Under the pieces are notes generated by a model. The model did no database searches, was not told the DNA's origin, and was given only the letters and a program-made list of their open reading frames with translations. Below are positions 1,259 through 64,000 of a stretch of DNA of 64,000 bases, one piece after another. The stretch covers positions 1-64,000 of the forward strand of contig CANQKI010000003.1 of assembly GCA_947624355.1 (NCBI GenBank), written 5' to 3'. The translations under genes and the position numbers were made by a program. The first letter of the stretch is position 1. Each line of letters opens with the position of its first letter. The DNA is from an uncultured Clostridia bacterium (GTDB taxonomy: Bacteria > Bacillota > Clostridia > Christensenellales > Aristaeellaceae).

Positions 1259-1909
1259 TCAGCGTGCAAGCAGGGTGGAAGTTGCTTTCCAGTTTCCCAT
1301 AATCCGCACATCCGAAAAGCCAGCTTTCTTTAATACCTCTATTTCATGTTCCACTGTCAGCGGCGTGTCATAGTGATATAACGCATGGGGTTCAAGGCCC
1401 TGCCCGCTTTTCAGCCTTTCCAGTTCGAAAAAGTAAAAGCGTTCTGCTTCCTCCGATTCCGCGAAATAATCTGTCAAAACAAAATATCCGCTGTCGGTCA
1501 GGGCGGCATGCAGTTTCCGATACAGTTTCAGCTTTTGCGCGGCGGTGAAGTGATGGAGCGATTCGACGGATACGGCTGCGTCAAAGCGGTTTGCTCCAAA
1601 CAGAACATCGAAATAAGAACCGCAAATCAGGTTGATTTTACGGTTCGCAAATTTCCGTTTCAGGGCTGCCAGCATATCGGCGGACAAATCAATTCCCACC
1701 ACGGACGCGCTGCCGTTCAGGGCGAAATAGTATTCAAGTTCAAGCCCTGTACCGCAGCCCAAATCAAGCACATTTACTTCCTGTTCCAACGGAAGCAAGG
1801 CTGCCGTACAGGGATAAAATTCCTGTGCGCCTTCAATTTCCGTCATCATATGTTCGTCGTATCCGTTCAAACGGGCGGCGAAAAAAGCGTCCATTTTCTC
1901 AAGTTTCAT
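1259..1909 (-). CDS. Class I SAM-dependent methyltransferase
   Basis: VNVLDLGCGTGLELEYY motif I; small-molecule type methyltransferase. Confidence 0.85.
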   Translation of the reverse strand: MKLEKMDAFFAARLNGYDEHMMTEIEGAQEFYPCTAALLPLEQEVNVLDLGCGTGLELEYYFALNGSASVVGIDLSADMLAALKRKFANRKINLICGSYFDVLFGANRFDAAVSVESLHHFTAAQKLKLYRKLHAALTDSGYFVLTDYFAESEEAERFYFFELERLKSGQGLEPHALYHYDTPLTVEHEIEVLKKAGFSDVRIMGNWKATSTLLAR

Positions 1910-1998
1910 AAAATCCTCACGAAACTGCGGTTGATCTCCCGGGCCTTCCTGTCAGCGCAGTCCCTTCCGGGCTGCCTTTTCATTTTCGCAACGCAATG

Positions 1999-2712
1999 TC
2001 AGGCGGTTTTGCGGAACACCAGAAAATAGGAATGGTTTTTCCGGGCGTGCACCTGCTTTTGCAGCCGGGAAACGCTGGGGCGGTTATTGCGCATCATGAT
2101 GAAGAGATCTTCCACCTTCAGGCCGTGCCGGCAATATTCGTTGATGATTTCCACATGGGTCAGGTGCTGCTTGTTAGCGCTTACCTCGTCCTGGCATTTC
2201 ACGATCAGGATGCCGCCCTTCCGGAGCACCCGCAGGGCCTCGCACCCCGCGCTGAAATACATATCCAGCACCGCGCCATGGTAGCGGGGGGCGCCGGTAG
2301 GCTGATCGTACACGCTGCCGTCCGAATAGGCGTCACGGAAGGAGGAATAATTCCCGCCTCCCGCCAGATGCTCCGAATTCCGGCGGTAAAAACCCTCCAT
2401 ATACGGCGGATCGATCACCACGCAGTCCATGGATTGATCTCCATAGGGCAGGTTCCGGCAGTCGACCCCCGTTTTGATGTCCGAAAAATGCAAGGTATAT
2501 TTGGATTTATCCACCTTTTTCCAAAAAACGCCCCGGCCATAGGTCACGTCGGCCACTTCCGCCCCTTCCCGCACATACAATTGCAGAATCAGAGGGAAAA
2601 TATCTTCATTATTTTGCATGTAGGCAGAGAAAACAAGATTTGTACTGGGCTGCCCCGAAGCAGCCCTTCTTTTGATTTCGGCCATCTGCCGCTTCCGCTC
2701 CTTCCGGCGCAC
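1999..2712 (-). CDS. Site-specific DNA methyltransferase (DPPY, N4/N6 amino type)
   Basis: [13 protein letters not shown] motif IV and [14 protein letters not shown] motif I-like. Confidence 0.8.
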
Positions 2713-2882
2713 GGTTGCCCTTCAGCGTCAGCCCGCAAGCGCCGGGCGCTTCGCGGCGCATTTCCGTCCGCGTTTTCCGAAGGCGGCGGCAAATCAAAAA
2801 ATCGCCGCAAAGCCCCGAAAATTCAAGTGCTATTATAATCCATCGGCGGCCAAAAATCAAGGGACGGCCCCTGCGGAAGATT

Positions 2883-3719
2883 TCACTGCACCCGCTGCCA
2901 GAGGGTCCAGTACCCCTTTCCTTCCCGGCCCGGCTGGTAGCGGTAGCCGGGCAGCGGCGCGGGAGCCTGATATGGAGAGCCCGGCACGGCGTACGCCACC
3001 TGCACCACCCGGCTGTCCCGGGCCAGGTAGCCCACGGCGCAGTAGGGAACCGTTCGAAGCGGCGAAGGAGCCCGGACAAAGCGCCAGCCAGGCGCGTCAA
3101 AGGGCGCAATGGGCGGGCATTCGTCAAAATACGGCTTCAGCCCGGCGGCGGCTTCCGGCCAATCCAGCGCGGGCAGGGTATCGACGGCCTCCGCGTCCGT
3201 TTCCGGGCGCAGGTGCCACTTTTCTTCTTCCACCTCTCCCCGGGGTGCTTCCGCCGGACGCGGAGTTTCCGCCAGTGTCTCCTGCGCAGCTTCCGCTGGT
3301 TCCGTCGTCCTTGCTTCTTTCGCCGGTTCCGCGGTGTTCGGCGCGGCGGATACCTCCGTCACCGGGGTTATCTTCACCGGTTCTTCCCGTCCGGGGGGCT
3401 CTTCATTGCCCTTTCGCAGCCATTCCGCGGCCCGGAGGCGGAGCTGGCCTTCTTCCGGCCCGTCCTCCCAAAGCAGGATTTTGCTTTCGTTCGTTACGAA
3501 CAGGGCCCCCTCCCCCGCGTACCGGAGGCGAATGTTTCCCCGTCCGTCCGCCGTTCCCCGGGCGCACGGGACGACCCGGCCGGCATCCATTCTGTACAGC
3601 CCTACTTCCTCGCCGGGCGGCAGGCCCCTGGCCTCCGCTACCCCCTGATTTCCGTCTCCCCGGGCGTATCCCGCCGCGCCGCCGCGCCCCCGCAGCATTC
3701 TGTATTGCCTTTCCATCAC
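2883..3719 (-). CDS. Hypothetical protein, two conserved-looking ends joined by a Pro/Glu/Ala-rich linker
   Basis: Long ORF with low-complexity middle and GYRYQPGREGKGYWTLWQRVQ tail. Confidence 0.6.
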   Translation of the reverse strand: MMERQYRMLRGRGGAAGYARGDGNQGVAEARGLPPGEEVGLYRMDAGRVVPCARGTADGRGNIRLRYAGEGALFVTNESKILLWEDGPEEGQLRLRAAEWLRKGNEEPPGREEPVKITPVTEVSAAPNTAEPAKEARTTEPAEAAQETLAETPRPAEAPRGEVEEEKWHLRPETDAEAVDTLPALDWPEAAAGLKPYFDECPPIAPFDAPGWRFVRAPSPLRTVPYCAVGYLARDSRVVQVAYAVPGSPYQAPAPLPGYRYQPGREGKGYWTLWQRVQ

Positions 3720-3850
3720 GATCCCTCCCTGTTTCCATCCTATGACCGTGGAAAGAAGGATATGGCCGCCCCGGTTCGCCCGTTTTTTTCGGTTGCGCGA
3801 AAGCGGAATTTCGATTATAATGAAGGGTGAAACAAAGAAAGGAGCCCTTT

Positions 3851-4612
3851 ATGCGCATTCTGATTACCAATGACGACGGCATCGCCTCCGCGGGCCTGAA
3901 AGCCCTTGCCGATGCGGCCGCACAACGGGGCCACGAGATTTTTATCAGCGCCCCCAGCAGCCAGTGCAGCGCCAACAGCCAGCACATCACCCTTACCACC
4001 CCCCTCATCGTCCATAAGCGCCCCTGGCCGGACGCCGAGGCCTTTGCCGTGGACGGCACGCCTTCCGACTGCGTGCGCGTGGCCCCCTGCATGACGGATA
4101 AACCCTTTGACTTCTGCCTTTCGGGCATCAATCACGGGGAAAACGCCGGGGCCGCCGTCTATTACAGCGGAACCTGCGCCGCCGCCCGGGAGGCCGCCAC
4201 CCTGCACATCCCGGCCATGGCGGTATCCATTGTGCGGGACGAAACGGACGAAATGCGTGCCGCCCTGGCAAAAATGGCGGTGGATCTGATGGAAAAAATC
4301 AAGGACGTACCCCTGCCGCCCTTCGGCTTTTTCAATCTGAACGCCCCGGCCCTGCCGCCCGAAACCTGGAAGCCCTTGCAGGTGTGCCCCCTCTCCCAGG
4401 CCTATTACCTGGACACCTATGAACGCCGGGTGAGCCCTTACGGCACCACCTATTTCTGGCTGGATTCCAACGACACCTCCGGCCTGCCCATGGAGCCCAT
4501 CGAGCCTGGCAGCGATTACGCCTATCTGAAGGATGGCCATGTGACGTTTACCATCGTGGGGGCTTTTGGAAATCACAACGAGCTTTTGAAGGAAAAAATG
4601 CAGGAAGCATAA
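3851..4612 (+). CDS. surE: 5'/3'-nucleotidase SurE
   Basis: MRILITNDDGIASAGLKAL N-terminus; SGINHGENAG. Confidence 0.95.
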   Translation: MRILITNDDGIASAGLKALADAAAQRGHEIFISAPSSQCSANSQHITLTTPLIVHKRPWPDAEAFAVDGTPSDCVRVAPCMTDKPFDFCLSGINHGENAGAAVYYSGTCAAAREAATLHIPAMAVSIVRDETDEMRAALAKMAVDLMEKIKDVPLPPFGFFNLNAPALPPETWKPLQVCPLSQAYYLDTYERRVSPYGTTYFWLDSNDTSGLPMEPIEPGSDYAYLKDGHVTFTIVGAFGNHNELLKEKMQEA

Positions 4613-4688
4613 GATAAGTCTTGCATTTTTCCCTGTTTTGCCTGTATAATAAGGGGCGTATGATTCCTTCCGATGAATCGAGGCAAGT

Positions 4689-5555
4689 ATGGAAAACACG
4701 CACGATCTGATTGACAGGCTCAACCTCAGCGGCAGGCGCCTGAGCAAAAGCCACCGGCGGATTGCCGATTTTATTGTGAATCATTACGACAAGGCCGTGT
4801 TCATGACGGCGTCCGCCCTGGGCGACAGCGTGGGCGTGAGCGAAAGCACGGTGGTCCGCTTCGCCATGGCCATGGGATACGAGGGGTATCCGCAATTGCA
4901 GCATTCCCTGCAGGAATTGGCCCGGCACCGGCTCACCAACCTGCAGCGGTTTGAAATGAGCGGCGATATGGACGAGGCGGACGTGCTGCCCTCCTCCCTC
5001 AAGGCCGATATGCTCAATATCCGCCGCACGGCCGAGCAGATTGACGGAAAGACCTTTGCCGACGTGGTGGCCCGCCTCCTTTCGGCGGACACCATTTACG
5101 TGCTGGGCATGCGCTCGGCCGCGCCCCTGGCCCAGTTTTTCGGCCATTATCTGCAGTTTATTTTCCAGGACGTGCGGGTCATCGCCGCCTCCAGTGACGA
5201 CGTGTTTGAGGCCATCGCCCGCATCCGCAAAACGGACGTGCTGGTGGGTATCAGCTTCCCCCGCTACTCCAGCCGTACCCTGGAGGCCATGCGCTTCGCC
5301 CATGAAAGCGGCGCCCAGGTCATCGGCCTGACGGACGGGCCCATGAGCCCTTTGCACCAGGAGGCGGACGTGTGCCTTTCCGCCCGGACGGACGTGAATT
5401 CCTTCGTGGATTCCATGGTGGCCCCCATGTCGGTCATCAACGCGCTGCTGGCCGCCCTCGCCCTCAAAAAGCGGGATGAGCTCAGCCGCCACTTCTCCCG
5501 ATTGGAAGATATCTGGAGCGCCCACAGCGTATATGTGGGCAAGGAAAACCCGTAA
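4689..5555 (+). CDS. MurR/RpiR family transcriptional regulator
   Basis: N-terminal HTH plus SIS-like domain. Confidence 0.9.
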   Translation: MENTHDLIDRLNLSGRRLSKSHRRIADFIVNHYDKAVFMTASALGDSVGVSESTVVRFAMAMGYEGYPQLQHSLQELARHRLTNLQRFEMSGDMDEADVLPSSLKADMLNIRRTAEQIDGKTFADVVARLLSADTIYVLGMRSAAPLAQFFGHYLQFIFQDVRVIAASSDDVFEAIARIRKTDVLVGISFPRYSSRTLEAMRFAHESGAQVIGLTDGPMSPLHQEADVCLSARTDVNSFVDSMVAPMSVINALLAALALKKRDELSRHFSRLEDIWSAHSVYVGKENP

Positions 5556-5585
5556 TTTCGCGGAAACTTGGGAGGTCTTGCTCCA

Positions 5586-6842
5586 TTGACCCCGGAAAAT
5601 GAAGTAATTGTCATCGGCGGAGGCGCGGCCGGTATGCTGGCCGCGCTGTTTGCGTCGCGGGCCGGGGCCACGGTCACGCTGCTGGAACGCAACGAAAAAC
5701 TGGGCAAAAAACTGTATATCACGGGCAAGGGCCGCTGCAACGTGACCAACCAGTGCGACACGGATGAATTTCTGCAAAACGTGCCCCGGAACCCCCGGTT
5801 TCTCTACAGCGCCCTGCGCTGCCTGAACCCGGACGGGATGCGGGCGCTGCTGCGGGAGCTGGGCTGCGAAACCAAAGAGGAACGGGGCCGCAGGGTATTC
5901 CCCGTATCGGACAAGGCCAGCGATGTGACCCGCGCCCTGGAAAGGGGCCTGCGGCAAGCGGGGGTGCGCATTTTGCTGAACACCCGGGTCAGGCAGCTGG
6001 TCATGGCGGAAAAAAGCGTGACAGGCGTGCAGCTGGAGGACGGGCGGACGCTGCCCTGCGGCGCGGTGGTTGTGGCCACGGGAGGGCTTTCCTACCCTTC
6101 CACCGGCTCCACCGGCGACGGCCTTCGCTTCGCCCGGGAAACGGGCCACAGCCTGGTTCCCTGCCGGCCTTCCCTGGTGGGCCTTGTGACAAAGGAAGCG
6201 TGGCCCCAGGCGCTTCAGGGGCTTTCTTTGAAAAACATTTGCCTTACGGGCCTGTCCTGTGGTAAAATATTATACTCCGAACTGGGCGAAATGCTTTTTA
6301 CCCACTTCGGGATTTCCGGTCCCCTGGCCCTGGAGCTTTCATCGCATTTGCCCGAAAACGGCCGGGGTGAAATCTTCCTCGATCTCAAGCCGGGCCTGAC
6401 CGAGGAACAGTTGACCCGGCGGCTGAGCCGGGATTTTGCCGCGGCGGGCAAAAAGAAACTGGCCACCGTAATGCAGGGGCTGCTGCCCATGCGGTTAGCC
6501 GCCATCTTCCCCGGGCTGTGCCGGGTGGACGGGGAACAAACGTGCAGCCAGGTTCCCGCCCAGAACCGGGCGAAAATCGTGCACACCCTCAAATGCCTGC
6601 CCCTGACCGTAACCGGCACGCGGCCCATCGATGAGGCCGTGATTACCCGGGGCGGCGTGGACGTGCGCATGATCAATCCCGCCGTTATGGCCTCCCGCAT
6701 TACGGACGGGCTGTATTTCGCGGGGGAAGTGATCGACGTGGACGCCCACACCGGGGGCTATAACCTGCAGATTGCTTTCTCCACCGGCGCCCTGGCCGGC
6801 AAAAGCGCGGCGGGCTATCTTGAAAAAAGGACGGCGAAGTGA
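5586..6842 (+). CDS. NAD(P)/FAD-dependent oxidoreductase (HI0933/YhiN-like)
   Basis: VIVIGGGAAGMLAALFASRAGATVTLLERNEKLGKKLYITGKGRCNVTN; TTG start with GGGAGG RBS. Confidence 0.9.
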   Translation: MTPENEVIVIGGGAAGMLAALFASRAGATVTLLERNEKLGKKLYITGKGRCNVTNQCDTDEFLQNVPRNPRFLYSALRCLNPDGMRALLRELGCETKEERGRRVFPVSDKASDVTRALERGLRQAGVRILLNTRVRQLVMAEKSVTGVQLEDGRTLPCGAVVVATGGLSYPSTGSTGDGLRFARETGHSLVPCRPSLVGLVTKEAWPQALQGLSLKNICLTGLSCGKILYSELGEMLFTHFGISGPLALELSSHLPENGRGEIFLDLKPGLTEEQLTRRLSRDFAAAGKKKLATVMQGLLPMRLAAIFPGLCRVDGEQTCSQVPAQNRAKIVHTLKCLPLTVTGTRPIDEAVITRGGVDVRMINPAVMASRITDGLYFAGEVIDVDAHTGGYNLQIAFSTGALAGKSAAGYLEKRTAK

Positions 6843-6848
6843 ACGCCT

Positions 6849-7820
6849 ATGCAGTACATTGTATTGGACCTGGAATGGAATCAGCCGATCTCCTATAATT
6901 CCACGGCGTACAAGAGCGTGGGGAGCAAGCTGCTCTTTGAAATGATCCAGATCGGCGCGGTGAAGGTGAACGAGAAATTCGAAATCGTGGATTCCTTCAG
7001 CGTGCTGATCCGCCCCCGGCACTACGTCCGGCTGCATCCGCGCATTGCCAGGATTACCCACATCACCCAGGAGGAGCTGGAAAAAGCCCCCGATTTCAAC
7101 GAAGCCGTGGAGGCCTTTGCCGCCTGGTGCGGCGACGATTATGCCCTGCTCACCTGGGGGTGCGACGACGTTTCGGTGCTGGCCCAGAACATGAGCTTTT
7201 TCGAATGCAATGTGAAGCTGGCCGGTTTTTACGATATCCAGCGGCTCTTTGGGGAAGTGATCGGCAACAAAAAGGAGCGCCAGGGGCTCAAGGCCGCCAT
7301 GGAGCACTTTGAAATTTCCCCCGATGAGGAAACCATGCCCTTCCACAACGCCGTAAACGACGCGTATTACACCGCCCTGGTCTTTGCCCGTCTCCCCGAC
7401 CCCAACAAGGTGCTGGAATACCCGCAAAGCCCCCGGAAGCTGCGTCACCTGAACCGCGCCAGGAAGGAAAGCCAGGCGATTCTGCGGGTGCGTTCCATGA
7501 AGGACGCCATGCGCAGCGCCGCCGTGCTCAATCCCCCCTGCCCTATCTGCGGAAAAAAGCTGCCCCTGCCCGAGGATGAAGGCTATATTCCCCAGGGGGA
7601 AAACAAGTGGATGGCTTTGGCGGACTGTCCCCAGCACGGGTTGGTTTTTGTCCGGCTGCAGTTTGGCAAAAACGACGACGGCAAGCGCATCATGACCCGC
7701 AGCACCTCCCTTTCCGAAGAACAAAGCGCCCCCTACGTGCACACCAAGCACCTGCAGTGGCGGCAGAAAGCGGCCATCCTGAAGGAAAAGGAAGCGGCAG
7801 AAACCAAAACGGAAGCCTGA
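6849..7820 (+). CDS. DEDDh 3'-5' exonuclease family protein
   Basis: YIVLDLEWNQP...HITQEELEKAPDF...HNAVNDAYYTALV. Confidence 0.85.
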   Translation: MQYIVLDLEWNQPISYNSTAYKSVGSKLLFEMIQIGAVKVNEKFEIVDSFSVLIRPRHYVRLHPRIARITHITQEELEKAPDFNEAVEAFAAWCGDDYALLTWGCDDVSVLAQNMSFFECNVKLAGFYDIQRLFGEVIGNKKERQGLKAAMEHFEISPDEETMPFHNAVNDAYYTALVFARLPDPNKVLEYPQSPRKLRHLNRARKESQAILRVRSMKDAMRSAAVLNPPCPICGKKLPLPEDEGYIPQGENKWMALADCPQHGLVFVRLQFGKNDDGKRIMTRSTSLSEEQSAPYVHTKHLQWRQKAAILKEKEAAETKTEA

Positions 7821-7961
7821 CAATCGCAAAAATGGACTTCCCTCCATGAAATCAACGCGGCAAAAGGCCGCGTTTGGAAGTATCCCCTTTTTTACCGACC
7901 CCATAATACTTTGAACGTTTGACCTGCGGAACCCCACCGCTGAAGAAAGGAGAAGAAATTG

Positions 7962-9608
7962 ATGTACATTCAAATGCTGAACAGACAACAGGAATTTCCC
8001 GCCCCCTGCACGGTGCTGGAAATCATCCGCGCCATGGCCCCGGAGGAAGAAAAAACGGCCCTGGGCTGCTTTTGCGGCGGAAAGTCGCTGGAACTGAACG
8101 AAGTGGTTTCGGAATCCTGCGCCCTGCACCCCATCACCTTCCAGAATGAGGAAGGCCGCCGCATTTACGAGCGTTCCCTTCGCTTCGTACTGCTTTTGGC
8201 CGTGCACCGGGTGCTCCCCGGGCTTCATGTGCGCATCGAGCATTCCATCGGCTACGGCGTATATATGCGCCTGATGGAACGGGACCTGACCGACGGAGAC
8301 ATTGCCGCCCTCCAGGCCGAAATGGAAAAAATCGTAAAGGAAAATTTGCCCTTCGTCCGGCAAAAGTGGGACAGGGAGCAGGCCATCCGGTACTTTGACG
8401 CCGAGGGCGAGCATGACACCGCCCGTCTGCTTTCCTACCGTCCCTATGATTATTTCAACGTTTACCAGTGCGGCGGCATGAGCGAATATTTTTACGGGGC
8501 CATGCTGCCCTCCACCGGCTATGTGTCCGCCTTCCGGATGATTCCCCATCTGCCCGGCATGGTGATGCAGATGCCCGGGCCCAAGAATCCCGCCGTGCCG
8601 GCGCCCTTCCATCCCCTGCCCAAGCATCTGCAGGCCTTTGCCCAGTCCAACCACTGGTGCGACATTCTGGGCTGCAAAAACGCCGCCGACCTCAACGACA
8701 TGACCGTCAGCGGCCGCCTGCCCGAATTCATCCGCATCAACGAAGCGCTGCACGATAAATCCATCGGCGAAATTGCCGACGGTATCCGGCAGAAGGGCGC
8801 CAAGGCCGTATTTGTGGCCGGCCCTTCCTCCAGCGGCAAGACCACCTTTGCCAACCGCCTGTGCATTCATCTGCGGGTGCTGGGCCTGCGCCCGGTGCTC
8901 ATTTCCCTGGACGATTTCTACCTGGACCGGGACGTGCTGCCCCTGGAGGCGGACGGCAAGCCCGATCTGGAGGCCCTGTCCGCCCTGGATGTGCCCCTGC
9001 TGCGCGGGTGCCTGAAGGGCTTGCTGGAAGGGGAAGAAGTGCAGATGCCCTCCTTTGATTTCACCGTAAGCAAGCGGAACCTGAACGGCTGGCGGCCCCT
9101 GAAGCTGGAAAACGACCAGGTGCTGGTGATGGAGGGCATCCACGGCCTGAATCCCGCCCTGCACGAGGGGTTTGACCCGCACCTGCTGGCCAAGGTGTAT
9201 ATCAGCGAGCTGACCTGCCTGAACCTGGATAACCACAACCGCATCCGCACCACGGACGCCCGGCTGCTGCGCCGCATCGTGCGGGATCATCAGTTCCGCT
9301 GCACGCCCCCCGAGGAAACGCTTGACATGTGGAACAGCGTGCGCCGGGGCGAGGAAAAATGGATTTTCCCCTATCAGGAACAGGCGGATTTCGTATTCAA
9401 TTCGGCCCTGCACTATGAACTGCCCGTGCTGAAGCGGTATGCCTATGACCTGCTCAAGGAAATCAAACCCGATAATCCGGTGTACCTTTCCTCCCGCAGG
9501 CTGCTCAAGATTCTGCATTACATTCTGCCCGCCCCCGAAAACGCGCTGCAGGAAATTCCGCCCCTGTCCCTGCTGCGGGAATTCATCGGCGGCTGCACCC
9601 TGTACTGA
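7962..9608 (+). CDS. Nucleoside (uridine) kinase with N-terminal ThrRS-like region
   Basis: P-loop VFVAGPSSSGKTTFANRL; RRIVRDHQFRC. Confidence 0.88.
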   Translation: MYIQMLNRQQEFPAPCTVLEIIRAMAPEEEKTALGCFCGGKSLELNEVVSESCALHPITFQNEEGRRIYERSLRFVLLLAVHRVLPGLHVRIEHSIGYGVYMRLMERDLTDGDIAALQAEMEKIVKENLPFVRQKWDREQAIRYFDAEGEHDTARLLSYRPYDYFNVYQCGGMSEYFYGAMLPSTGYVSAFRMIPHLPGMVMQMPGPKNPAVPAPFHPLPKHLQAFAQSNHWCDILGCKNAADLNDMTVSGRLPEFIRINEALHDKSIGEIADGIRQKGAKAVFVAGPSSSGKTTFANRLCIHLRVLGLRPVLISLDDFYLDRDVLPLEADGKPDLEALSALDVPLLRGCLKGLLEGEEVQMPSFDFTVSKRNLNGWRPLKLENDQVLVMEGIHGLNPALHEGFDPHLLAKVYISELTCLNLDNHNRIRTTDARLLRRIVRDHQFRCTPPEETLDMWNSVRRGEEKWIFPYQEQADFVFNSALHYELPVLKRYAYDLLKEIKPDNPVYLSSRRLLKILHYILPAPENALQEIPPLSLLREFIGGCTLY

Positions 9609-9628
9609 CCGACGGATAGGAGGCACAT

Positions 9629-10285
9629 ATGATTCTCAAAGGCGCAACCGTTAATTTTCTCGGCGACAGCATCACGGAGGGCGCAGGCGCGTCCTGCCTG
9701 GAAAAATGCTACGTTTCCGTGCTGGAAAAGGAATTCGGCCTCAAAAAGGCCAATAATTACGGCATCGGCGGCACCCGCATCGCCCGTCAGCCCGTCGTGA
9801 CCGACAGCCCCTTCGACCAGGACTACTGCATGCGGATGAGTACCATGGACGAAAATGCCGACGCGGTGGTGGTATTCGGCGGCACCAACGATTTCGGTCA
9901 CGGCCTGGCGCCCCTGGGCGTGCCCACCGACCGCACCCCCGACACCTTCTGGGGCGCGTGCCATTACCTGATGGACGGGCTGATGAGCCGCTATGTGGGC
10001 AAGCCCGTAATGATTATCACGCCCCTGCACCGGCTGGGGGAGGAAAACCCCAAGGGCGACGGCGGCAAGCCCGCCAGCGTAGCCCCGCTCCGGGTGTACC
10101 GGGACATTCTGATTTCCGTGGCGCAGTATTACGGCCTGCCCGTGCTGGACCTCTACAGCGTCAGCGGCATGCAGCCCGCCAACCCCGTCTGCCGGGAGCG
10201 CCTCATGCCCGACGGCCTGCACCCCAGCGACGAGGGCCACGCCATCCTGGCCCGGAAAATCGGACTGTTTTTGCAAACCTTATAA
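9629..10285 (+). CDS. SGNH/GDSL hydrolase
   Basis: VNFLGDSITEGAGAS; GGTNDFGHG; DGLHPSDEGH. Confidence 0.9.
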   Translation: MILKGATVNFLGDSITEGAGASCLEKCYVSVLEKEFGLKKANNYGIGGTRIARQPVVTDSPFDQDYCMRMSTMDENADAVVVFGGTNDFGHGLAPLGVPTDRTPDTFWGACHYLMDGLMSRYVGKPVMIITPLHRLGEENPKGDGGKPASVAPLRVYRDILISVAQYYGLPVLDLYSVSGMQPANPVCRERLMPDGLHPSDEGHAILARKIGLFLQTL

Positions 10286-55382: not shown

Positions 55383-56555
55383 TTACTTGGCGATATCTTC
55401 GATGGTCATATGGGCCAGGATGTCGCGCAGGCCGGCATAGGTGGCATCGGGATTGCCAAAGGCGGTCATGTTCAGCACCTGATCGGGCGTAAACATGGCG
55501 TCGGCGGCATTGCCGGTGTAGTAAATGCTGTGAACGAACACGTCCAGGTCTTCATCGCTGTTGATGCAGAACTGGCTGGTGCTGATGCGCTCGGCAGCTT
55601 CGGGCATGTCGGGGAAGTCCACGCCGTTGATCTTGTTCAGGATCAGAACCAGCGGATAGGTGACGGATTCCACAGCGGATACCATGTTCTGCTGGAAGGT
55701 CTGGGTGCCCTTGGTGCCGAAGTTGTTTTCTTCGCCGCCCTCAAAGCCGGTGGTGAAGAGCTTGATGTCCTTATCCACGCCGGCCTGCACCATCACGGGA
55801 TAGACAAAGCTGGTGCCGGCCGCGAAGGAGATGATGCCTTCGATACCGGGATGCTTGGCGAAGTACGTGGTGTCCATGGGAGAGAACATCAGCACGTCCA
55901 CTTCCTCATCCAGGGGATCCACGGTGATGGGCGTTTCGGCCGTCTTATTGTATTCCTCGACGGCTTCCACAAACTGCTGCGCGCCGGTCATCTGGGACGG
56001 GAAGGCCCAGACGGGGAAGATTGCCATAGACACATGGGTCAGGGGCTTTTCGGCACGGGCGTTGTATTCGAGCAGGCTGTTGAACATGGTGGTGCCGATG
56101 GTGGTGTCGTCAGGATTCTGACCGTCGGTCGCGGTGCCCAGGAAGTATTCGCTCTTGAACACGCGGTCATAGTTCTGGGTGTAGGAGGTGTCATAGTCGC
56201 ACAGGTAGCCGGCCAGATACACGCCCGCCATCTCGCATTCCTCGATGATGGAATTGGTGCCCAGATCCATGGTGCAGATGATGCCGTCCACATTGGCGGA
56301 AATCAGGTTCTGGATGGTGGACAGGTTGGCGGATTCGTCGGTCTGGGTCAGCACGGCATAAACGAATTCCACGTTCAGCGCATCGGACAGGGATTCCAGA
56401 TAAGCCTTGGTGGCAGTGACGGCATAGCCGGTATCCTGATAGAAGGCTACGCCGATTTTGGCATGCTTGGGTTCAGCGCTGGCAACGGACATGCAGCCCA
56501 GCGCCATGACGAACACCAGCATCAAAGCGACGAGAGACTTGGTGAACTGTTTCAT
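55383..56555 (-). CDS. Periplasmic-binding-protein-like sugar SBP
   Basis: Signal peptide; KIGVAFYQDTGYAVT; VDGIICTMDLGTNS. Confidence 0.88.
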   Translation of the reverse strand: MKQFTKSLVALMLVFVMALGCMSVASAEPKHAKIGVAFYQDTGYAVTATKAYLESLSDALNVEFVYAVLTQTDESANLSTIQNLISANVDGIICTMDLGTNSIIEECEMAGVYLAGYLCDYDTSYTQNYDRVFKSEYFLGTATDGQNPDDTTIGTTMFNSLLEYNARAEKPLTHVSMAIFPVWAFPSQMTGAQQFVEAVEEYNKTAETPITVDPLDEEVDVLMFSPMDTTYFAKHPGIEGIISFAAGTSFVYPVMVQAGVDKDIKLFTTGFEGGEENNFGTKGTQTFQQNMVSAVESVTYPLVLILNKINGVDFPDMPEAAERISTSQFCINSDEDLDVFVHSIYYTGNAADAMFTPDQVLNMTAFGNPDATYAGLRDILAHMTIEDIAK

Positions 56556-56655
56556 GAGTAGGTTCCTCCTTTAAATGTTTTGGAATTTACGCTCCGGAGC
56601 GACGCCAAGGTGCCATCTATGTTTTACCGCCGGGCCGGTAAAATCCGAATCAGGA

Positions 56656-57654
56656 TCAGCGGGGAAGCACGCCGCCGTGTTTGCGGCAGGTGATCAGGAT
56701 AATGACGATGAAAATGGCGGCCTTTACAAAGTTGATCATGTTCAGGTCCACGCCCATGGTCGTCAGGTCATTGGTCAGAAGAACATAGGTCAGCGTACCC
56801 ACCAAAGCGCTGGAAACCTTGGATTTCATGCCGCCGGACAGGGGCATGCCGCCCAGAATCAGGCAAATCATGATATCCATGGCATAGCCGGTGCCAGTGC
56901 CCTTGCCCGCGCTGCCGGTGCGCATCAGCATCACATAAGAGCCGATGGCCACGCACACGCCGAAGGCCATATACGCGATGACCTTCCATTTGGTCGTGTT
57001 CACGCCGCTTTGCGCGGTGGCCGTTTCGTTGGCGCCGATGCCGCGCGTGTACTTGCCCAGTTTTGTGAAACGGGAAAAGTACGTAACCGCCAGCGTAACG
57101 GCCACAATGATCAGAACGAGCACCAGATTATAAGCGCTTCGGTTGGCGGGACGCAGCAGGGAGGTGGGAACGGAAATGGAGTTTGTGCCGGTGCTTTCCA
57201 TCAGCAACAGCTGCGCGCCGGTAAAGAAGAACATGAGGAACAGAGAAGTGACGATGGAAGGCAGCTTCAGCCACACGGCGACTGCGCCGTTGAATGCGCC
57301 GCACAGCAACGCCAGCGCCAGTACCGCCAGGAAGCCCAGGATCACGCCCAGAACACCGCCCACGGCGTTGATAATCATGATCATCAGAATGGCATATACG
57401 CCCACCTGCTGGCCGACGCTGACGTCCATATAGCCCATGGAATAGACGAACACGGCGCCCAGGGCGATGATGATGGTCGGCGCGCTGGTCTGCAGGACCG
57501 TCTGGGCATTATAGGAAAGACGTTTGCCGCCGAAAATCAGGAACAAAATCAAGGTGACCGCCAGGCCGGCGTACGCGGCGATATCATAGACGTGCTTTCC
57601 CAGAAACGCCAGGAAGGAGTTTTGCTTTTCCGCCGGATTGGTTTTCGTGCTCAT
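56656..57654 (-). CDS. Ribose-type sugar ABC permease
   Basis: SYNAQTVLQTSAPTIIIALGAVFVYSMGYMDVSVG. Confidence 0.9.
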   Translation of the reverse strand: MSTKTNPAEKQNSFLAFLGKHVYDIAAYAGLAVTLILFLIFGGKRLSYNAQTVLQTSAPTIIIALGAVFVYSMGYMDVSVGQQVGVYAILMIMIINAVGGVLGVILGFLAVLALALLCGAFNGAVAVWLKLPSIVTSLFLMFFFTGAQLLLMESTGTNSISVPTSLLRPANRSAYNLVLVLIIVAVTLAVTYFSRFTKLGKYTRGIGANETATAQSGVNTTKWKVIAYMAFGVCVAIGSYVMLMRTGSAGKGTGTGYAMDIMICLILGGMPLSGGMKSKVSSALVGTLTYVLLTNDLTTMGVDLNMINFVKAAIFIVIILITCRKHGGVLPR

Positions 57655-57671
57655 TTTGTCTCCCTCCTTCA

Positions 57672-59177
57672 TTAAATCACGTATTCGATCATGTCCGTTT
57701 CGGACAGTTCGGGACTGCGTTCCAATTCTCCGGATACCTTGAAATCCTTCATCACGATGATGCGGTCCGCCATGCCGATGAGCTCAGCCATTTCTTCGCT
57801 GATGAGCAGGATAGCCTTTCCCTGCTTCTTCATTTCACCGATCAAAGCATACATGGCCTGCTTCACGCCGATATCCACGCCGCGTGTAGGACAGTCCATA
57901 ATCAGCACGTCGGACCCCTTGGCCGTCCATTTGCCGAAGGAAACCTTCTGCTTGTTTCCGCCGGACAGTGTATTGACCCATTGTTTGCCGTTATTGCATT
58001 TGATGCGGAAGGAGTCGATTTCCTTTTTGGCCATTTTCTTTTCTGCCGCTGGGCTAATGAACGTGGCGTGCGACAGGGCGGGCAGGGAAGGAAGCACGAT
58101 GTTTTCCCCGATCGCCGCTTCCAGGATCAGCGCTTCTTTGTCGCGGTTCTTGGAGATATAGCCGATCCCTTCTTTGATGGCCTGATAGCAGTTTGTAATC
58201 TCCTTGCCGTTGCGCAGCACTTTTCCGCCCGCCAGCTTTTCCAGGCCGAACGCGGCGCGGCCGATCTCGTGCATGCCGCAGCCGCTGAGGCCGCCGAAGC
58301 CGATGATTTCTCCTTTATGCAGCTTCAGGGAGAAATGCTCGATGGGGCCGAACGTGATATCCTGCAGTTCCAGCGCCACCTCTGGCAAGTGCGACGTATC
58401 GTAATCTTCCCGATAGTAGGCTTCGCCGATTTCACGGCCCACCATCATGTAACGGATGCGCTGCACGGCGTCCGGCGCGTCCATTTCGGCACGGTCCAGG
58501 TGGCCGATGATTTCGCCGTCCCGCAGCACGGTCAAATCGGTGCACTGTTCCAGAATCTCATCCATATCGTGAGAAATGAAAATGACCGATTTCCCTTCAT
58601 CCTTCATTTTGTGGATCAGCTTGTAGAGAATGTTGCGGCCTTCCAGCGACAGGGCCGTGGTGGTTTCGTCCACCACGAACACCTGCGTGTCGTCGGATAC
58701 GCACCGCACGATCTCAATCAGCTTGCGGTCCTCGAAACCGTACTTGTTGATGCTGTCCGCCGCCTTGATGTGGGAAATGCCGAAATCGTCCAGCATTTTC
58801 TGGGCCGCTTCCGTCACTTTCTTCATGTTGACGATTCTGAATTTCGAGAATTCATCAAACTGCCCGGCAAAGATGTTTTCCGCTACGGTGCAGTCTGGAA
58901 TCGTATTGGCTTCCTGCAGTACCATGCTGATGCCCTTTTCCTGGGCTTCCACCATGGTGGAGGGGTTCCAGGGCTGCCCGTGATAGAACATTTCCCCGCT
59001 GGTTGCCTTCTGCATGCCGGAGATAATGGAAGTGATGGTGGATTTCCCACTGCCGTTTTCTCCCACCAGCCCCCGAATCTGGCCGGCGTAGAATTTCATA
59101 TCCACGCCGCGCAGCGCACGGGTCGGGCCAAAGTTTTTGACCACGTTCCTGACCTCGATGACGACTTCGTTGCTCAT
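57672..59177 (-). CDS. Sugar ABC transporter ATP-binding protein (two NBDs, RbsA/MglA-like)
   Basis: GLVGENGSGKSTITSIISG; NTLSGGNKQKVSFGKW. Confidence 0.95.
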   Translation of the reverse strand: MSNEVVIEVRNVVKNFGPTRALRGVDMKFYAGQIRGLVGENGSGKSTITSIISGMQKATSGEMFYHGQPWNPSTMVEAQEKGISMVLQEANTIPDCTVAENIFAGQFDEFSKFRIVNMKKVTEAAQKMLDDFGISHIKAADSINKYGFEDRKLIEIVRCVSDDTQVFVVDETTTALSLEGRNILYKLIHKMKDEGKSVIFISHDMDEILEQCTDLTVLRDGEIIGHLDRAEMDAPDAVQRIRYMMVGREIGEAYYREDYDTSHLPEVALELQDITFGPIEHFSLKLHKGEIIGFGGLSGCGMHEIGRAAFGLEKLAGGKVLRNGKEITNCYQAIKEGIGYISKNRDKEALILEAAIGENIVLPSLPALSHATFISPAAEKKMAKKEIDSFRIKCNNGKQWVNTLSGGNKQKVSFGKWTAKGSDVLIMDCPTRGVDIGVKQAMYALIGEMKKQGKAILLISEEMAELIGMADRIIVMKDFKVSGELERSPELSETDMIEYVI

Positions 59178-59287
59178 GTTCTTCCTCACATCCTGTCTGA
59201 AATTGATACGGTCGCAATGATGTTTTGTTCAGGGAATAACCTTCTATTTTAAGGAATCCCGCTTTTCCAAGCCGGTATTCCTTAAAC

Positions 59288-60427
59288 TCAGCGGTATTTC
59301 AGCCAGCCATGCTGAATGCACTTGCGAAAGTCCCAGGCGTCAGGCCGATCCTCTGTCACTTTATAGCTCCAGTACGCGCCGCCCTCCACCTGATCCCAGG
59401 CTTCCATATGCGCGTCGGCCAGCTGACGGTATAAGGCCCGGGCTTTTTCATCATTTTCGGCGTTCTTAATATCTTCCATATTCTGCACCAGGCACCATTC
59501 GCCCACCATGACAGGATGGTGCTCCGCGGCCTGCAAAACATCTTTCAGAAAGATTTCCCGAATCAGCTTCAAATAGTTTTCCATAATCAGCCCGCCATGG
59601 ATCTCCCCGCCGTTTGCCTGGTAAGCGTATGCGGAGGGCAGGCCGTTATAGGCAAACATGCCTTCAGAGAAGGTCAGGTATTTGTGCGCATCCAGCCAGA
59701 CGCCGGGATATTCTTCCTTTGGCATGAAGTCCGCCCAGCGGGAAAGATCGAACTGATCCGACAGGACAATCACGGCATCCTTGGGCAATAAGGGCTTGAT
59801 GCGCCGGTACACATCCAAATAGAATTGCTTTAAAAAAGTATCCGGGACAGCTTCAGACTGCGCAACGCGTTCAGGATAACGGTCCTTGAACAAAAATGCG
59901 TTCATCGCCATAATGTGATCGCTGGCGGGCTCGTTGATCGGCCCGATGCCGAACAGCGCGGGGCTGGCGGCGTATCGTTTTGCCAGTTTTTCCAGCAGCT
60001 GCAGGCTTTCTTCCACATACTCCGGGTGCTTGTGCCAGGTGCACAGGCCGCATGCGCCGCTGTTGTCAAATCCGTTCTGGCCGCCGCGCACGGAATGCAG
60101 ATCGATCAGCACCTTGATACCGTATTTTTCCGCCCATTGGAAAGCCTTGTCCAGACAGTCGATCGAGGCCGGGCGCCCCGGTTCGCCATAGATATAATAC
60201 GGAATGGGAATGCGCACCATATTGACGCCCGCATACGCCATAAAGGAAAAATCGTCTTCCGTAATATAGCTTTCGTAGTGCTTCCGCAGCCGTCTGCAGG
60301 CTTCCTGTTCAGGGAGCTGCGAGAAAAAGTCCAGCTCATCCTCGCCGTCGATCCCCTCGAACAATGCTGGCTGCATCCATTTTTCAAGCGAAAGCCAGTT
60401 GCCCAGGTTCACGCCCCGCAGCTTCAT
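59288..60427 (-). CDS. GH5-type glycoside hydrolase (exo-beta-1,3-glucanase-like)
   Basis: RGVNLGNWLSLEKWMQPALF; IGPINEPAS; VGEWCLVQ. Confidence 0.9.
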   Translation of the reverse strand: MKLRGVNLGNWLSLEKWMQPALFEGIDGEDELDFFSQLPEQEACRRLRKHYESYITEDDFSFMAYAGVNMVRIPIPYYIYGEPGRPASIDCLDKAFQWAEKYGIKVLIDLHSVRGGQNGFDNSGACGLCTWHKHPEYVEESLQLLEKLAKRYAASPALFGIGPINEPASDHIMAMNAFLFKDRYPERVAQSEAVPDTFLKQFYLDVYRRIKPLLPKDAVIVLSDQFDLSRWADFMPKEEYPGVWLDAHKYLTFSEGMFAYNGLPSAYAYQANGGEIHGGLIMENYLKLIREIFLKDVLQAAEHHPVMVGEWCLVQNMEDIKNAENDEKARALYRQLADAHMEAWDQVEGGAYWSYKVTEDRPDAWDFRKCIQHGWLKYR

Positions 60428-60445
60428 TCCCACCGCCTCCTTCCG

Positions 60446-61621
60446 TCATCTTTCCGTTTGATCCGGAAACCATCCCAAGTCGTGGCAGCGGCCCAAATCC
60501 CAGGCGTCCCAGCCCACCCAGCCGGCTGTGTTGACCGTATCGGTGAGCAGCTTGTAGCTCCAGAAGATATATCCGTGGCCGCGGTTCCAGGCTGCCAGCT
60601 GCGCTGCCGCGATCGCCCTGTACAAATCCTTCTTTTCTTCGTCGCCCATGCACTCCCGGGACGACCCCTCCATACCGTTCAGCACCGTTTGACCGCCCTT
60701 GGTGTCACGCCCTGTGGCCAAAGAATTGAACAGGCACCATTCACCGCAGATCACCGGGAAATACTGTTCCATTTCTTCGACCAGCCGATAGTAATTGTCC
60801 ATGATATAGCGCACGTAGCCGGGCGCGCTTTGCTCGCAGCCCATGCCTTCGGCGTTCATCAGGTACTGATGGGTGTCCAGCCAGACGTTTTTGTAGCAAT
60901 CCTCCCGCATGAAATCCTTCCAGGCCGTCAGGTCAAAGGCGTCATGCAGCACGACGGCTTTCTCTTCCGGCATATGCTTGCGAAGCTTCCAATAGGCTTC
61001 CACATAGAACCACCGCAGGAAACCAAAGGAAATGCCGGCGCTGCCTTCAGCCACTTGGGGATCCCGGGGCTTGTAGCGGTCCTGCACATGGGCGACGCTC
61101 CACAGCCATTCGTTCATGGGTTCGTTGATGGGCTGGATGCCAAAAAGGCTTTCGTGCCGGCCGTACCGCTCCGCCAGCTTTTCCAGCAGATTGAGCACAA
61201 AATCAATCTTTTCCTGGCTTTGCGCCCATTTGCACACGCCGCTGATGCCGCTGTTGTCAAATCCGTTCTGGCCGCCCGGCACCGTATGCAGATCGATCAG
61301 GATTTTCAGCCCATACCGTTTGGCCCAGGAAAAGGCTTTGTCCAGTTCTTCGATGCAGCCGATATAGGGCGCCACGTCTCCGAAAATAAAATAGGGAATC
61401 GGGATGCGGACGGTATTCAGGCCCATGGCGCGGATACGGATAAAATCGCCTTCCGAAATGTATTCTGACCGGTGCACCCGGATACGCGCTTCATAGACTT
61501 CCTTTGGCAGCATCCGGGGAAGATCGTATTCGTCCTGCGCATCGGTGTTATAAAACAGAGCGGGACTCATCCACTTTTCCAGCACCAGCCAGTTGCCGAG
61601 ATTAACGCCCTTGATCTTCAA
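60446..61621 (-). CDS. GH5-type glycoside hydrolase, paralogue of the preceding gene
   Basis: KGVNLGNWLVLEKWMSPALF; QPINEPMNE; CGEWCLFN; probable TTG start. Confidence 0.9.
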   Translation of the reverse strand: MKIKGVNLGNWLVLEKWMSPALFYNTDAQDEYDLPRMLPKEVYEARIRVHRSEYISEGDFIRIRAMGLNTVRIPIPYFIFGDVAPYIGCIEELDKAFSWAKRYGLKILIDLHTVPGGQNGFDNSGISGVCKWAQSQEKIDFVLNLLEKLAERYGRHESLFGIQPINEPMNEWLWSVAHVQDRYKPRDPQVAEGSAGISFGFLRWFYVEAYWKLRKHMPEEKAVVLHDAFDLTAWKDFMREDCYKNVWLDTHQYLMNAEGMGCEQSAPGYVRYIMDNYYRLVEEMEQYFPVICGEWCLFNSLATGRDTKGGQTVLNGMEGSSRECMGDEEKKDLYRAIAAAQLAAWNRGHGYIFWSYKLLTDTVNTAGWVGWDAWDLGRCHDLGWFPDQTER

Positions 61622-61782
61622 TCCATCACTTTCTTTCCTGGACTTGTTTTATGCCCGCGCTTCAGCGAAAAAATGTCAAATGTGGTGGAATTCATTCCAA
61701 TATAACAATAGCAAAAAAAAGCGCCCGGTTTATACCATAAATCCGAGCATTTTATCATATTTATTAGTTTTGTTGTTCGTTT

Positions 61783-64000
61783 CTACTTTTCCTTCCGGTC
61801 CCCGTATAATGCTCTGTACTGCTTTGGCGTCATGCCGGTCCATTTTTTGAAAACCTTGCCCATATGGCTCTGGGAAGAAAAAGAAAGGGATGCCGCAATA
61901 TCGTCAAGGGATTTGGCGCTGAAAATCAGTTCATGAGCCGCCGCGCGCGCCTTCTCCCGGCTGATATAGTCGATGACCGTCATCCCCGTCTCCCTTGAAA
62001 ACAGCTGAGAGAGGTATTCAGGGTTAATGTTCATGGCGGCAGCGATTTCTTTGACGGTCAGTTTGGCGGCAATTCGCTTGACGATCAATTCCCTGCATCG
62101 AATCACCAACGGGTTTTCTGTCTTAACATTATTATACTTTCTCACCGCCAAACAGTATTCCGCCTGCGCGTTTCGAAGCAGGGCACCGATCTTTTCCCAG
62201 TCCTCCTGCGCTTCGATCTGCTGGATAAACACGTCGCTCATAGAAAAGGCCACTTCCGAGGGGACGCCGCCGCGTATCGCAGTACGGGAAGAAATGCCGG
62301 TAACCACGATGGCAATATCTTTCAGGTTTCGTACTGCATCCTTTGAAACGGTGCCGACCTTATCCATTTCCAGCTCATCAAAAACTTTCAGCAGGCCCTC
62401 CAGATTCCCGGTTCGGATGCACTCCTGTTCCCGCTGCTCCTGCAGGTAGGAATTATGGCTTCTTTCGCTTTCCTGTAAATCAGCCGTAAAGGACTGCACT
62501 TTTTTTCTGATTTCTTCGTTTTGTTTCCGCATGGACGCTGTCCCCGCATTTTCCGTGTCCGCGGACGGCAAAAGCTCCGGGAGCAGATCCTGATACAAAA
62601 AGAAATCAAAGTCAGCGTATTTTTGATGCAGCAGCCGGTCCGCGCAGGTCAGGCCGACGAAGCATCCCGTGAATTCGCCGAACCGGGAATACTCATCGGA
62701 AAATTCGCTGGTATCAAAAACAGGCCCAATGGTTTTCCATCGCTTTCCGTCATCGGAATAACTGAAAAACGATTTGCGGCCTTCGATCATCAGTTTCATC
62801 CAGACCGAACCGCTTGGTGCAGGGATACGTTCATGTTCGGTCCGTTCGCCGTTTCTGATTCTGAGCACGGATAAAGCCGGCCGGCCCAGCGTATCGCTGT
62901 AATACTTCCGCAGGAAAGCGAAATTCATGTTATCGTAATACAGGATAAGCCCCGCGCTCTGCTGATAAACCTCGGGCTCAAATTCCATCCGGGTCATGAC
63001 TTTTGCGTGTACGCTGCGCAGCTTACGGGCCAGCAGGCTCACCCGGTGCAGGGAACAGCCGGATTCCTGCCCCCGCATACGAAGCCAGCCGGGACGGGCC
63101 GATAAATCGCAAAAGCTGCCTGGGGCGATTCGGGGCGCGTAATACTGAATGCCCAAACAGCCGCAGTCAAAATCGTCCCTGTCCGGAATTTGCGCCGGTT
63201 TCCAGTCGGGCAGCCCGCTTCCTTCCACAAAGGTTTCCGCCATCCTTCCGCCGGACGCCAGGCGAAGCCATCCGTCCTCCGTCCATTTCATTTTCTGGAT
63301 GGCCGTTTCCCGCCCCAAAGTGCAGCGCAGCTCCGGGGTAAAGGGCCTGGCGCACAAATGCACCAGATAGACTTCCCCCAGGCTCGTTTCCACATAGCTG
63401 CCATGGCCGCATTTTTGCAGATAACTCGCCGGGTTATAGTAATGCGGCTTTAAGTGATCCACATCCTGCCGCTCATTTCTTTCTTCCGGCGTCGCCGTGA
63501 CGATGGGATTCATTGGGTCGCTTTCATAAGGCCCGAAAGGGTTCCGGGCCCGGGCCATTGTCACGCAGTGATAGTAGCCCGTGCCGCCCTCTGCGCACAT
63601 GAGATAATAGTATTCTCCGTGCCGGGTCAGATGCGGCGCTTCCAGACATCCCCTGTCCGTGCCGCCCCGCCAGATACGCCGGGGATTTCCCCTGATTCTT
63701 TTTTCCTGCGGATCGTATTCCGCGATGCAGATTTGTCCGGGCTTTTCATAGCCCGATCTCGTTTCCCAATCGAGGGCCACCACCCATTTCCGCCCGTCCC
63801 GGTCGTGAAACAGGGAAGCGTCAAAGCCGGAGGAATGCAGATAAACAGGCTCGCTCCATGGCCCGCAAATATCTTTGGCCGTGATGAGATAATTGTCGAT
63901 GTCGAAATAGCGTGCGTTCATGGAATGCATGATCCCATACACGACATAAAACAAATCCTCATCCTCGCAATAGGTAAGACACGGCGCCCAAATGCCTTTC
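61783..64000 (-). CDS. GH43-type domain fused to AraC-family regulator (5' end beyond window)
   Basis: Open frame to 64000 (KGIWAPCLTY...); GFDASLFHDRDG; CLEAPHLTRHGEYYYLMCAEGGTGYYH; C-terminal AraC HTHs VKEIAAAMNINPEYLSQLFSRETG. Confidence 0.9.
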   Translation of the reverse strand, partial: KGIWAPCLTYCEDEDLFYVVYGIMHSMNARYFDIDNYLITAKDICGPWSEPVYLHSSGFDASLFHDRDGRKWVVALDWETRSGYEKPGQICIAEYDPQEKRIRGNPRRIWRGGTDRGCLEAPHLTRHGEYYYLMCAEGGTGYYHCVTMARARNPFGPYESDPMNPIVTATPEERNERQDVDHLKPHYYNPASYLQKCGHGSYVETSLGEVYLVHLCARPFTPELRCTLGRETAIQKMKWTEDGWLRLASGGRMAETFVEGSGLPDWKPAQIPDRDDFDCGCLGIQYYAPRIAPGSFCDLSARPGWLRMRGQESGCSLHRVSLLARKLRSVHAKVMTRMEFEPEVYQQSAGLILYYDNMNFAFLRKYYSDTLGRPALSVLRIRNGERTEHERIPAPSGSVWMKLMIEGRKSFFSYSDDGKRWKTIGPVFDTSEFSDEYSRFGEFTGCFVGLTCADRLLHQKYADFDFFLYQDLLPELLPSADTENAGTASMRKQNEEIRKKVQSFTADLQESERSHNSYLQEQREQECIRTGNLEGLLKVFDELEMDKVGTVSKDAVRNLKDIAIVVTGISSRTAIRGGVPSEVAFSMSDVFIQQIEAQEDWEKIGALLRNAQAEYCLAVRKYNNVKTENPLVIRCRELIVKRIAAKLTVKEIAAAMNINPEYLSQLFSRETGMTVIDYISREKARAAAHELIFSAKSLDDIAASLSFSSQSHMGKVFKKWTGMTPKQYRALYGDRKEK

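What the first reader, a model, noticed from the sequence alone, without database searches (positions are those of the whole stretch)
61783..64000. Single ORF fusing a GH43-type glycosidase domain to an AraC transcription regulator
The minus-strand frame is open from the window edge to 61783. It begins inside a GH43-like domain (KGIWAPCLTY..., GFDASLFHDRDG, CLEAPHLTRHGEYYYLMCAEGGTGYYH) and passes through a beta-sandwich-like region (MRMRGQESGCSLHRV..., FSYSDDGKRWKTIG). It then enters a coiled-coil-like linker and an AraC effector-like region (VRNLKDIAIVVTGISSRTAIRGGVPSEVAFSMSD), ending in two AraC HTHs. The GH43 Asp (pKa-modulator region) and Glu (EAPH, acid region) appear retained; the N-terminal catalytic Asp lies outside the window. 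Inference: a cytosolic enzyme-sensor that binds or cleaves an incoming oligosaccharide and controls the adjacent GH/ABC locus.
Basis: partly seen in the sequence, partly recalled or inferred. Interest (0 to 1): 0.85.

Follow-up and report, generated by a model that had tools for sequence, protein, structure and literature searches.

The report
Sugar-cutting enzyme fused to gene switch
A group of rumen bacteria carries a single protein that joins an apparently working xylose-releasing enzyme to a DNA-binding gene switch, in the exact spot of the locus where a relative keeps the switch as a separate gene, so the enzyme probably acts as the switch's sugar sensor.

Summary
The contig continues, and the whole gene (window 61783-64206, minus strand) is one uninterrupted 807-aa ORF with a strong ribosome-binding site. 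It contains a GH43 catalytic domain, a GH43_C2 domain, a helical linker and middle region, and an AraC DNA-binding domain. The three GH43 catalytic residues (D14, D129, E189) are present. Six further single-ORF fusions (68-80% identical over full length) occur in rumen or ruminant-gut MAGs. Their AraC halves form one clade (100/99), and all segments evolve under purifying selection. This is an old, maintained protein, not an assembly error.

In unfused relatives the two halves are separate genes of one locus. In L019 the order is GH42, AraC, GH5, MFS, GH43. Its AraC is the closest stand-alone relative found and sits exactly where the fused gene sits in the window (GH42, [GH43-AraC], GH5, GH5, ABC). 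The GH43 enzyme has replaced the AraC protein's own N-terminal ~150-aa sensor.

Most likely mechanism (inferred): a cytosolic xylosidase-like enzyme whose sugar occupancy controls AraC binding at the neighbouring GH/transporter operon. Activity, ligand and operator are untested. AraC-GH39 fusions exist, so this is a new variant of a known kind.

The parts
61783..64000 (-). GH43-AraC fusion gene (full gene is 61783-64206, 807 aa; the first 206 bases lie beyond the window on the same contig)
63265..64000 (-). GH43 five-bladed propeller catalytic domain, residues 4-314 (N-terminal part incl. D14 lies outside the window); D129 at 63820-63822, E189 at 63640-63642
   Evidence: Pfam PF04616 2.1e-84; alignment to GH43 xylosidases of known structure; AF2 + Foldseek to 1yrz
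62590..63180 (-). GH43_C2 concanavalin A-like domain, residues 343-539, with F512, the equivalent of the Phe that closes the active site in GH43 xylosidases
   Evidence: Pfam PF17851 1.3e-47
62455..62586 (-). Low-confidence linker and first helix, residues 541-584; the fusion joint
   Evidence: AF2 pLDDT <50 at 545-560 and 573-583; end of homology to unfused GH43s
62107..62454 (-).
   Evidence: TIGR04094 match 559-798 (below its curated cut-off)
61810..62046 (-). AraC DNA-binding domain (two HTHs), residues 721-799
   Evidence: Pfam PF12833 2.2e-21
61712..61748 (-). Conserved terminator-like hairpin with T-run just after the fusion gene (GCTCGG...CCGGGC-T8)
   Evidence: alignment of five loci; sequence. 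The consensus scanner did not list it
60446..61621 (-). GH5 gene a, next gene downstream; found in this place in five of seven fused loci
59288..60433 (-). GH5 gene b
55383..59189 (-). Sugar ABC transporter of the ribose/arabinose type: ATPase 57672-59189, permease 56656-57672, binding protein 55383-56555; order conserved in L010 and L014

Best explanation
This is a genuine enzyme-regulator fusion. A cytosolic GH43 beta-xylosidase/arabinofuranosidase-like enzyme with its catalytic residues intact has been joined to the C-terminal half (helical middle region plus two-HTH DNA-binding domain) of the AraC regulator that lies in the same GH42/GH5/transporter/GH43 locus in relatives, replacing that regulator's own N-terminal sensor domain. 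SHOWN: the single ORF; its conservation in seven species; purifying selection on every segment; a single origin of the AraC half; the separate genes in the same locus of unfused relatives. INFERRED: an imported glycoside or its hydrolysis product in the GH43 pocket changes the arrangement of the AraC halves (GH43_C2 enzymes are oligomers, family knowledge, so the enzyme may also supply dimerisation), switching on the downstream GH5-GH5-ABC operon and probably the fusion's own GH42 operon. The enzyme would thus be both consumer and sensor of the sugar, a one-component trigger enzyme that shuts off when substrate runs out.
For: Full-length single ORF and domains. D14/D129/E189, R299, T209 and F512 invariant in all seven fused proteins. 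Six orthologous fusions. dN/dS mostly 0.05-0.17 (one pair 0.27 in the linker), with both halves constrained. AraC halves monophyletic 100/99, with L019's stand-alone AraC as sister, 99/98. L019 order GH42-AraC-GH5-MFS-GH43 against window GH42-[GH43-AraC]-GH5-GH5-ABC; stand-alone AraC also near GH5/GH43 in L022, L023, L031, L039, L040. A GH5 or GH3 is the next gene in all seven fused loci, while three unfused sisters of the same clade with flanks on hand (L016-L018) have no GH5, GH3 or GH42 relative nearby. Stand-alone relatives carry ~150 aa of N-terminal sequence that the fusion lacks, and align over the whole helical middle region. AF2 model mean pLDDT 86; GH43 part matches 1yrz with TM 0.95 over the target.
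Against: No experiment on catalysis, ligand or DNA binding. No operator identified: the spacer upstream of GH5 shows only a weak shared box and no significant promoter match. The AF2 linker is low confidence, so how the halves communicate is unknown. One member, L010, has W73R and H268C in the pocket, so full activity may not be universal. Four near relatives keep GH43 without the AraC half, so the enzyme is useful on its own.
Confidence: 0.6

Rival explanations
1. The two halves work independently: GH43 is an ordinary enzyme tethered to a regulator, and the fusion only fixes their ratio or places the enzyme under autoregulation. Ligand sensing, if any, lies in the helical middle region.
For: The helical middle region is retained and conserved in all seven and might itself bind an effector. 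The linker is flexible in the model.
Against: The fusion removed exactly the stand-alone regulator's N-terminal domain, where AraC-family effectors usually bind (family knowledge), and put GH43 in its place. This arrangement was kept through saturated synonymous divergence.
Confidence: 0.22
2. The GH43 domain has become a pure sugar sensor without catalysis, as BzdR's shikimate-kinase-like domain did.
For: Precedent BzdR (PMC3602430). L010 has lost W73 and H268 and has a long branch in the GH43 tree.
Against: The catalytic triad and R299/T209/F512 are invariant in all seven, W73/H268 are kept in six of seven, and the catalytic domain is the most conserved segment (84-88% identity against 57-81% for the linker and middle region).
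Confidence: 0.12
3. Two separate proteins are made from the frame by internal initiation (for example at ATG 62532) or proteolysis in the linker.
For: An in-frame ATG lies at residue 559 in the window, L010 and L014. Several other in-frame start codons with moderate ribosome-binding sites exist. The linker is predicted with low confidence.
Against: No start codon between residues 540 and 610 is shared by all seven fused proteins. The 559 site has a weak ribosome-binding site. A separate start would not need the stop-free junction to persist in all seven.
Confidence: 0.05
4. Assembly or sequencing artefact that hides a stop or frameshift.
For: The window and all fused relatives are draft assemblies, the relatives metagenome-derived.
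Against: Seven assemblies from different studies and hosts show the same uninterrupted frame and junction, with dN/dS far below 1 across it.
Confidence: 0.01

Closest known systems
GH43 xylosidases with GH43_C2 domain (Bacillus halodurans 1yrz; GSXynB3 2exh; Selenomonas ruminantium 3c2u)
   Same: Residues 3-541 align end to end (1yrz E 4.6e-140; TM 0.95 over 1yrz); catalytic D14/D129/E189 and F512 present
   Different: Those solved enzymes end at about residue 540; here another 265 residues of AraC regulator follow
AraC regulators matched by NCBIfam TIGR04094 (adjacent_YSIRK) and the stand-alone AraC of the GH42/GH5/GH43 locus (L019:3883-5073)
   Same: Helical middle region plus two-HTH domain align over residues 556-805 (46% identity to L019)
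   Different: Their N-terminal ~150-aa sensor is absent and replaced by GH43-GH43_C2; the TIGR04094 score (108) is below its cut-off of 200
AraC-GH39 fusion proteins (L080, L081, L082; 828-838 aa)
   Same: Glycosidase domain and AraC DNA-binding domain in one ORF in genomes of the same class
   Different: Order is cupin sensor, HTH, then GH39: the AraC protein is complete and the enzyme is appended; here the enzyme replaces the sensor and lies N-terminal
BzdR (shikimate-kinase-like domain joined to a HTH domain; PMC3602430)
   Same: A pathway-type enzyme domain recruited as effector domain of a transcription regulator
   Different: BzdR's enzyme domain lost its activity; here the catalytic residues are kept
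Trigger enzymes such as PutA (enzyme and DNA-binding domain in one chain; from memory)
   Same: Working concept: a metabolic enzyme that controls transcription of its own pathway
   Different: No trigger enzyme with a glycoside hydrolase domain was found in the papers searched

Membership tests
Glycoside hydrolase family 43 (GH43, with GH43_C2) | Match to the family model over its full length | tested here: met
   PF04616 2-288 of 288, 2.1e-84; PF17851 1-203 of 203
Glycoside hydrolase family 43 (GH43, with GH43_C2) | Asp base, Asp pKa modulator and Glu acid | tested here: met
   D14, D129, E189 aligned with D15, D128, E187 of 2exh; invariant in seven fused proteins
Glycoside hydrolase family 43 (GH43, with GH43_C2) | Glycosidase activity on xylosides or arabinosides | not testable with these tools
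   needs enzyme assay
AraC/XylS transcription regulators | C-terminal two-HTH AraC DNA-binding domain above cut-off | tested here: met
   HTH_18 76.3 bits, cut-off 33.6
AraC/XylS transcription regulators | Own N-terminal effector/dimerisation domain as in stand-alone relatives | tested here: not met
   Replaced by GH43-GH43_C2; stand-alone relatives have ~150 aa there
AraC/XylS transcription regulators | DNA binding and control of a target promoter | not testable with these tools
   no operator could be identified by sequence
TIGR04094 (adjacent_YSIRK regulator) | Score above curated cut-off | tested here: not met
   108 bits against 200; C-terminal part of the model only
AraC-glycosidase fusions (GH39 type) | Intact cupin-HTH N-terminus with C-terminal GH39 | tested here: not met
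   Different GH family, reversed order and no cupin

The most novel reading that the evidence does not exclude
A catalytically active glycoside hydrolase serves as the effector domain of a one-component transcription factor, so that turnover (not only binding) of an imported glycoside sets the DNA-binding state. Seven extant fusions, separate-gene ancestors and sister lineages that apparently dropped the regulator half would capture the enzyme-to-regulator transition in progress.
Probability: 0.4. Interest if true: 0.75.

Novelty: new variant of a known kind. Interest (0 to 1): 0.6.

Why it matters
Transcription factors are widely held to arise when enzymes acquire DNA-binding domains, but the published test case (BzdR) had to be reconstructed with synthetic chimeras because its enzyme domain has lost its activity (PMC3602430). 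Here natural chimeras with intact catalytic residues, unfused two-gene relatives with the same locus, and sister lineages without the AraC half are all available. That makes the order of events (fusion first, loss of activity later or never) directly testable. It also suggests a way for gut bacteria to sense small plant glycosides through the enzyme that degrades them, and warns annotators that these genes may be labelled as only an enzyme or only a regulator.

Tried and rejected
(1) Assembly or frameshift artefact: rejected by six orthologous fusions. (2) Internal start at 62532: the site exists but is weak and not conserved. (3) First AlphaFold job with only the seven fused proteins gave pLDDT 45 and was discarded; a 34-sequence alignment gave 86. 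(4) Search for an operator: the GH42-side upstream and GH5-side spacers were inspected; only a terminator-like hairpin and a vague ACCA-N4-TTGCATT-like box are shared, not enough to claim a binding site. (5) Single clean gain on the GH43 tree: the four unfused relatives L015-L018 nest among the fused ones (held-together tree p-AU 0.032), so secondary loss of the AraC half is favoured over several gains because the AraC halves form one clade. Recombination between fused and unfused copies is not excluded. (6) Literature searches for a GH43-AraC fusion found none; the library lacks most subscription journals, so this is weak evidence of absence. (7) Broad sampling: no other fused member in 396 genomes of the order or 399 of the phylum, so it is rare and patchily spread, probably by horizontal transfer among rumen Clostridia (inference).

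Full report
OBSERVATION. The window is part of a 71,266-base contig, and the rest of the gene was fetched. The complete gene is 807 codons (window 61783-64206, minus strand), starts with ATG after AAGGAGAGG, and follows a GH42 gene by 27 bases. Pfam gives GH43 (4-314), GH43_C2 (343-539) and HTH_18 (721-799), all far above cut-off. NCBIfam adds a sub-threshold match of residues 559-798 to TIGR04094, positions 147-383 of 383: the model's first ~146 positions have no counterpart here.

CATALYTIC SITE. Aligned to solved GH43 xylosidases (best 1yrz, E 4.6e-140), the base, pKa-modulator and acid positions are D14, D129 and E189. With R299, T209, F31, A74 and F512 they are identical in all seven fused and six unfused proteins compared. 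W73 and H268 differ only in L010 (R and C). There is no room for a signal peptide before D14, so a cytosolic location is likely (inference). An AlphaFold2 model from 34 sequences has mean pLDDT 86, and the GH43 part superposes on 1yrz (TM 0.95 over the target). The stretch 545-583 is the main poorly predicted part.

CONSERVATION. A scan of 84,980 species genomes returned six more full-length fusions, each one ORF: L010, L011, L012, L013, L014 and L034, 68-80% identical over ~805 residues. All come from ruminant-gut or rumen-study metagenomes, judging by the record titles. Whole-genome searches show no in-frame stops. dN/dS between fused members is mostly 0.05-0.17 in all four segments (one linker/middle-region pair 0.27) at near-saturated synonymous divergence. 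Both halves are therefore kept by selection. The architecture is rare: no other fused gene in 396 genomes of the order and 399 of the phylum.

ORIGIN. On a tree of AraC halves the seven fused proteins form one clade (100/99), and their sister (99/98) is the stand-alone AraC of L019. L019 is the telling locus: GH42 (1863-3893), AraC (3883-5073), GH5 (5239-6411), MFS sugar transporter (6510-7916), GH43 (8004-9650; 69% identical), all on one strand. The window has GH42, [GH43-AraC], GH5, GH5, ABC. The fused gene thus occupies the slot of the AraC gene, and the GH43 enzyme of the same locus stands where the regulator's N-terminal ~150 residues were. Stand-alone AraC genes of the same group also lie beside GH5/GH43, most with MFS or GH42 too, in L022, L023, L031, L039 and L040. 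On the GH43 tree four unfused proteins (L015-L018) nest inside the fused group (p-AU 0.032 against a fused-only clade). Together with the single origin of the AraC half, this favours one fusion and later loss of the AraC half. The three of these with downstream sequence on hand have no GH5, GH3 or GH42 relative nearby, whereas all seven fused genes are followed on the same strand by a GH5 (window, L010, L012, L013, L014) or a permuted GH3 (L011, L034). Having the regulator half goes with having something to regulate.

MECHANISM. Most likely the protein is a one-component sensor-enzyme: a sugar imported by the ABC transporter (MFS in relatives) binds and is probably cleaved in the GH43 site, and this changes the DNA-binding state of the AraC halves at the neighbouring operon. 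Shown: the parts, their conservation, and their origin from regulator and enzyme of one locus. Inferred: ligand control, activity, DNA target. A conserved terminator-like hairpin appears to end the fusion's transcription unit (window 61712-61748), so the GH5-GH5-ABC genes probably have their own promoter in the remaining ~90 bases. No operator could be defined.

COMPARISON. Membership in GH43 and possession of an AraC DNA-binding domain are met. The N-terminal effector domain of the AraC relatives is absent, so it should not be filed as an ordinary AraC regulator. AraC-GH39 fusions found here (L080-L082) show that glycosidase-AraC fusions are an existing kind of arrangement, but there the complete cupin-HTH regulator precedes the enzyme. 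BzdR (PMC3602430) is the closest worked-out case of an enzyme turned effector domain, with activity lost. No paper on a GH43-AraC fusion was found in the library searched.

VERDICT. Real, conserved and interesting: a new variant of a known kind, with the mechanism inferred, not shown.

Noticed in passing
L080:1414-3900 (-), L081:505-3021 (+), L082:481-2970 (+): Cupin-AraC-GH39 fusion proteins in other families of the same class; an independent kind of glycosidase-regulator fusion with the regulator complete.
   Followed up: partly
L010:1804-4230 (+): Fused protein with W73R and H268C in the otherwise invariant GH43 pocket and a longer branch; may be drifting towards a sensor without full activity, or be a MAG error.
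   Followed up: partly
L015:2074-3822, L016:8001-9686, L017:8001-9641, L018:8001-9665: GH43 genes of the fused clade that end just after the GH43_C2 domain, three of them in unrelated contexts; apparent losses of the AraC half.
   Followed up: yes
L006:1310-2103 and L047:8001-8794: GH43 copies broken into two short frames with the middle of the gene missing; identical pieces in both loci (same genome or duplicate record).
   Followed up: no
L002:10851-10880 (-), about 570 bases upstream of the GH42 gene, beyond the window: A tRNA 3'-end-like sequence (GTGGGTTCGAATCCCACCCGCTCCGCCA) not called as a full tRNA by ARAGORN; could mark the edge of an integrated island carrying the GH operon.
   Followed up: partly
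L002:12244-13299 (+), beyond the window: ORF resembling Rpn-type nuclease/transposase proteins (by eye, not tested) with a C-terminal run of near-identical GLKKGLAEGEA repeats.
   Followed up: no
window 61712-61748 (-) and the same place in L010, L012, L013, L014: Hairpin plus T-run after the fused gene conserved better than the rest of the spacer in five loci; probably a terminator, possibly more.
   Followed up: partly
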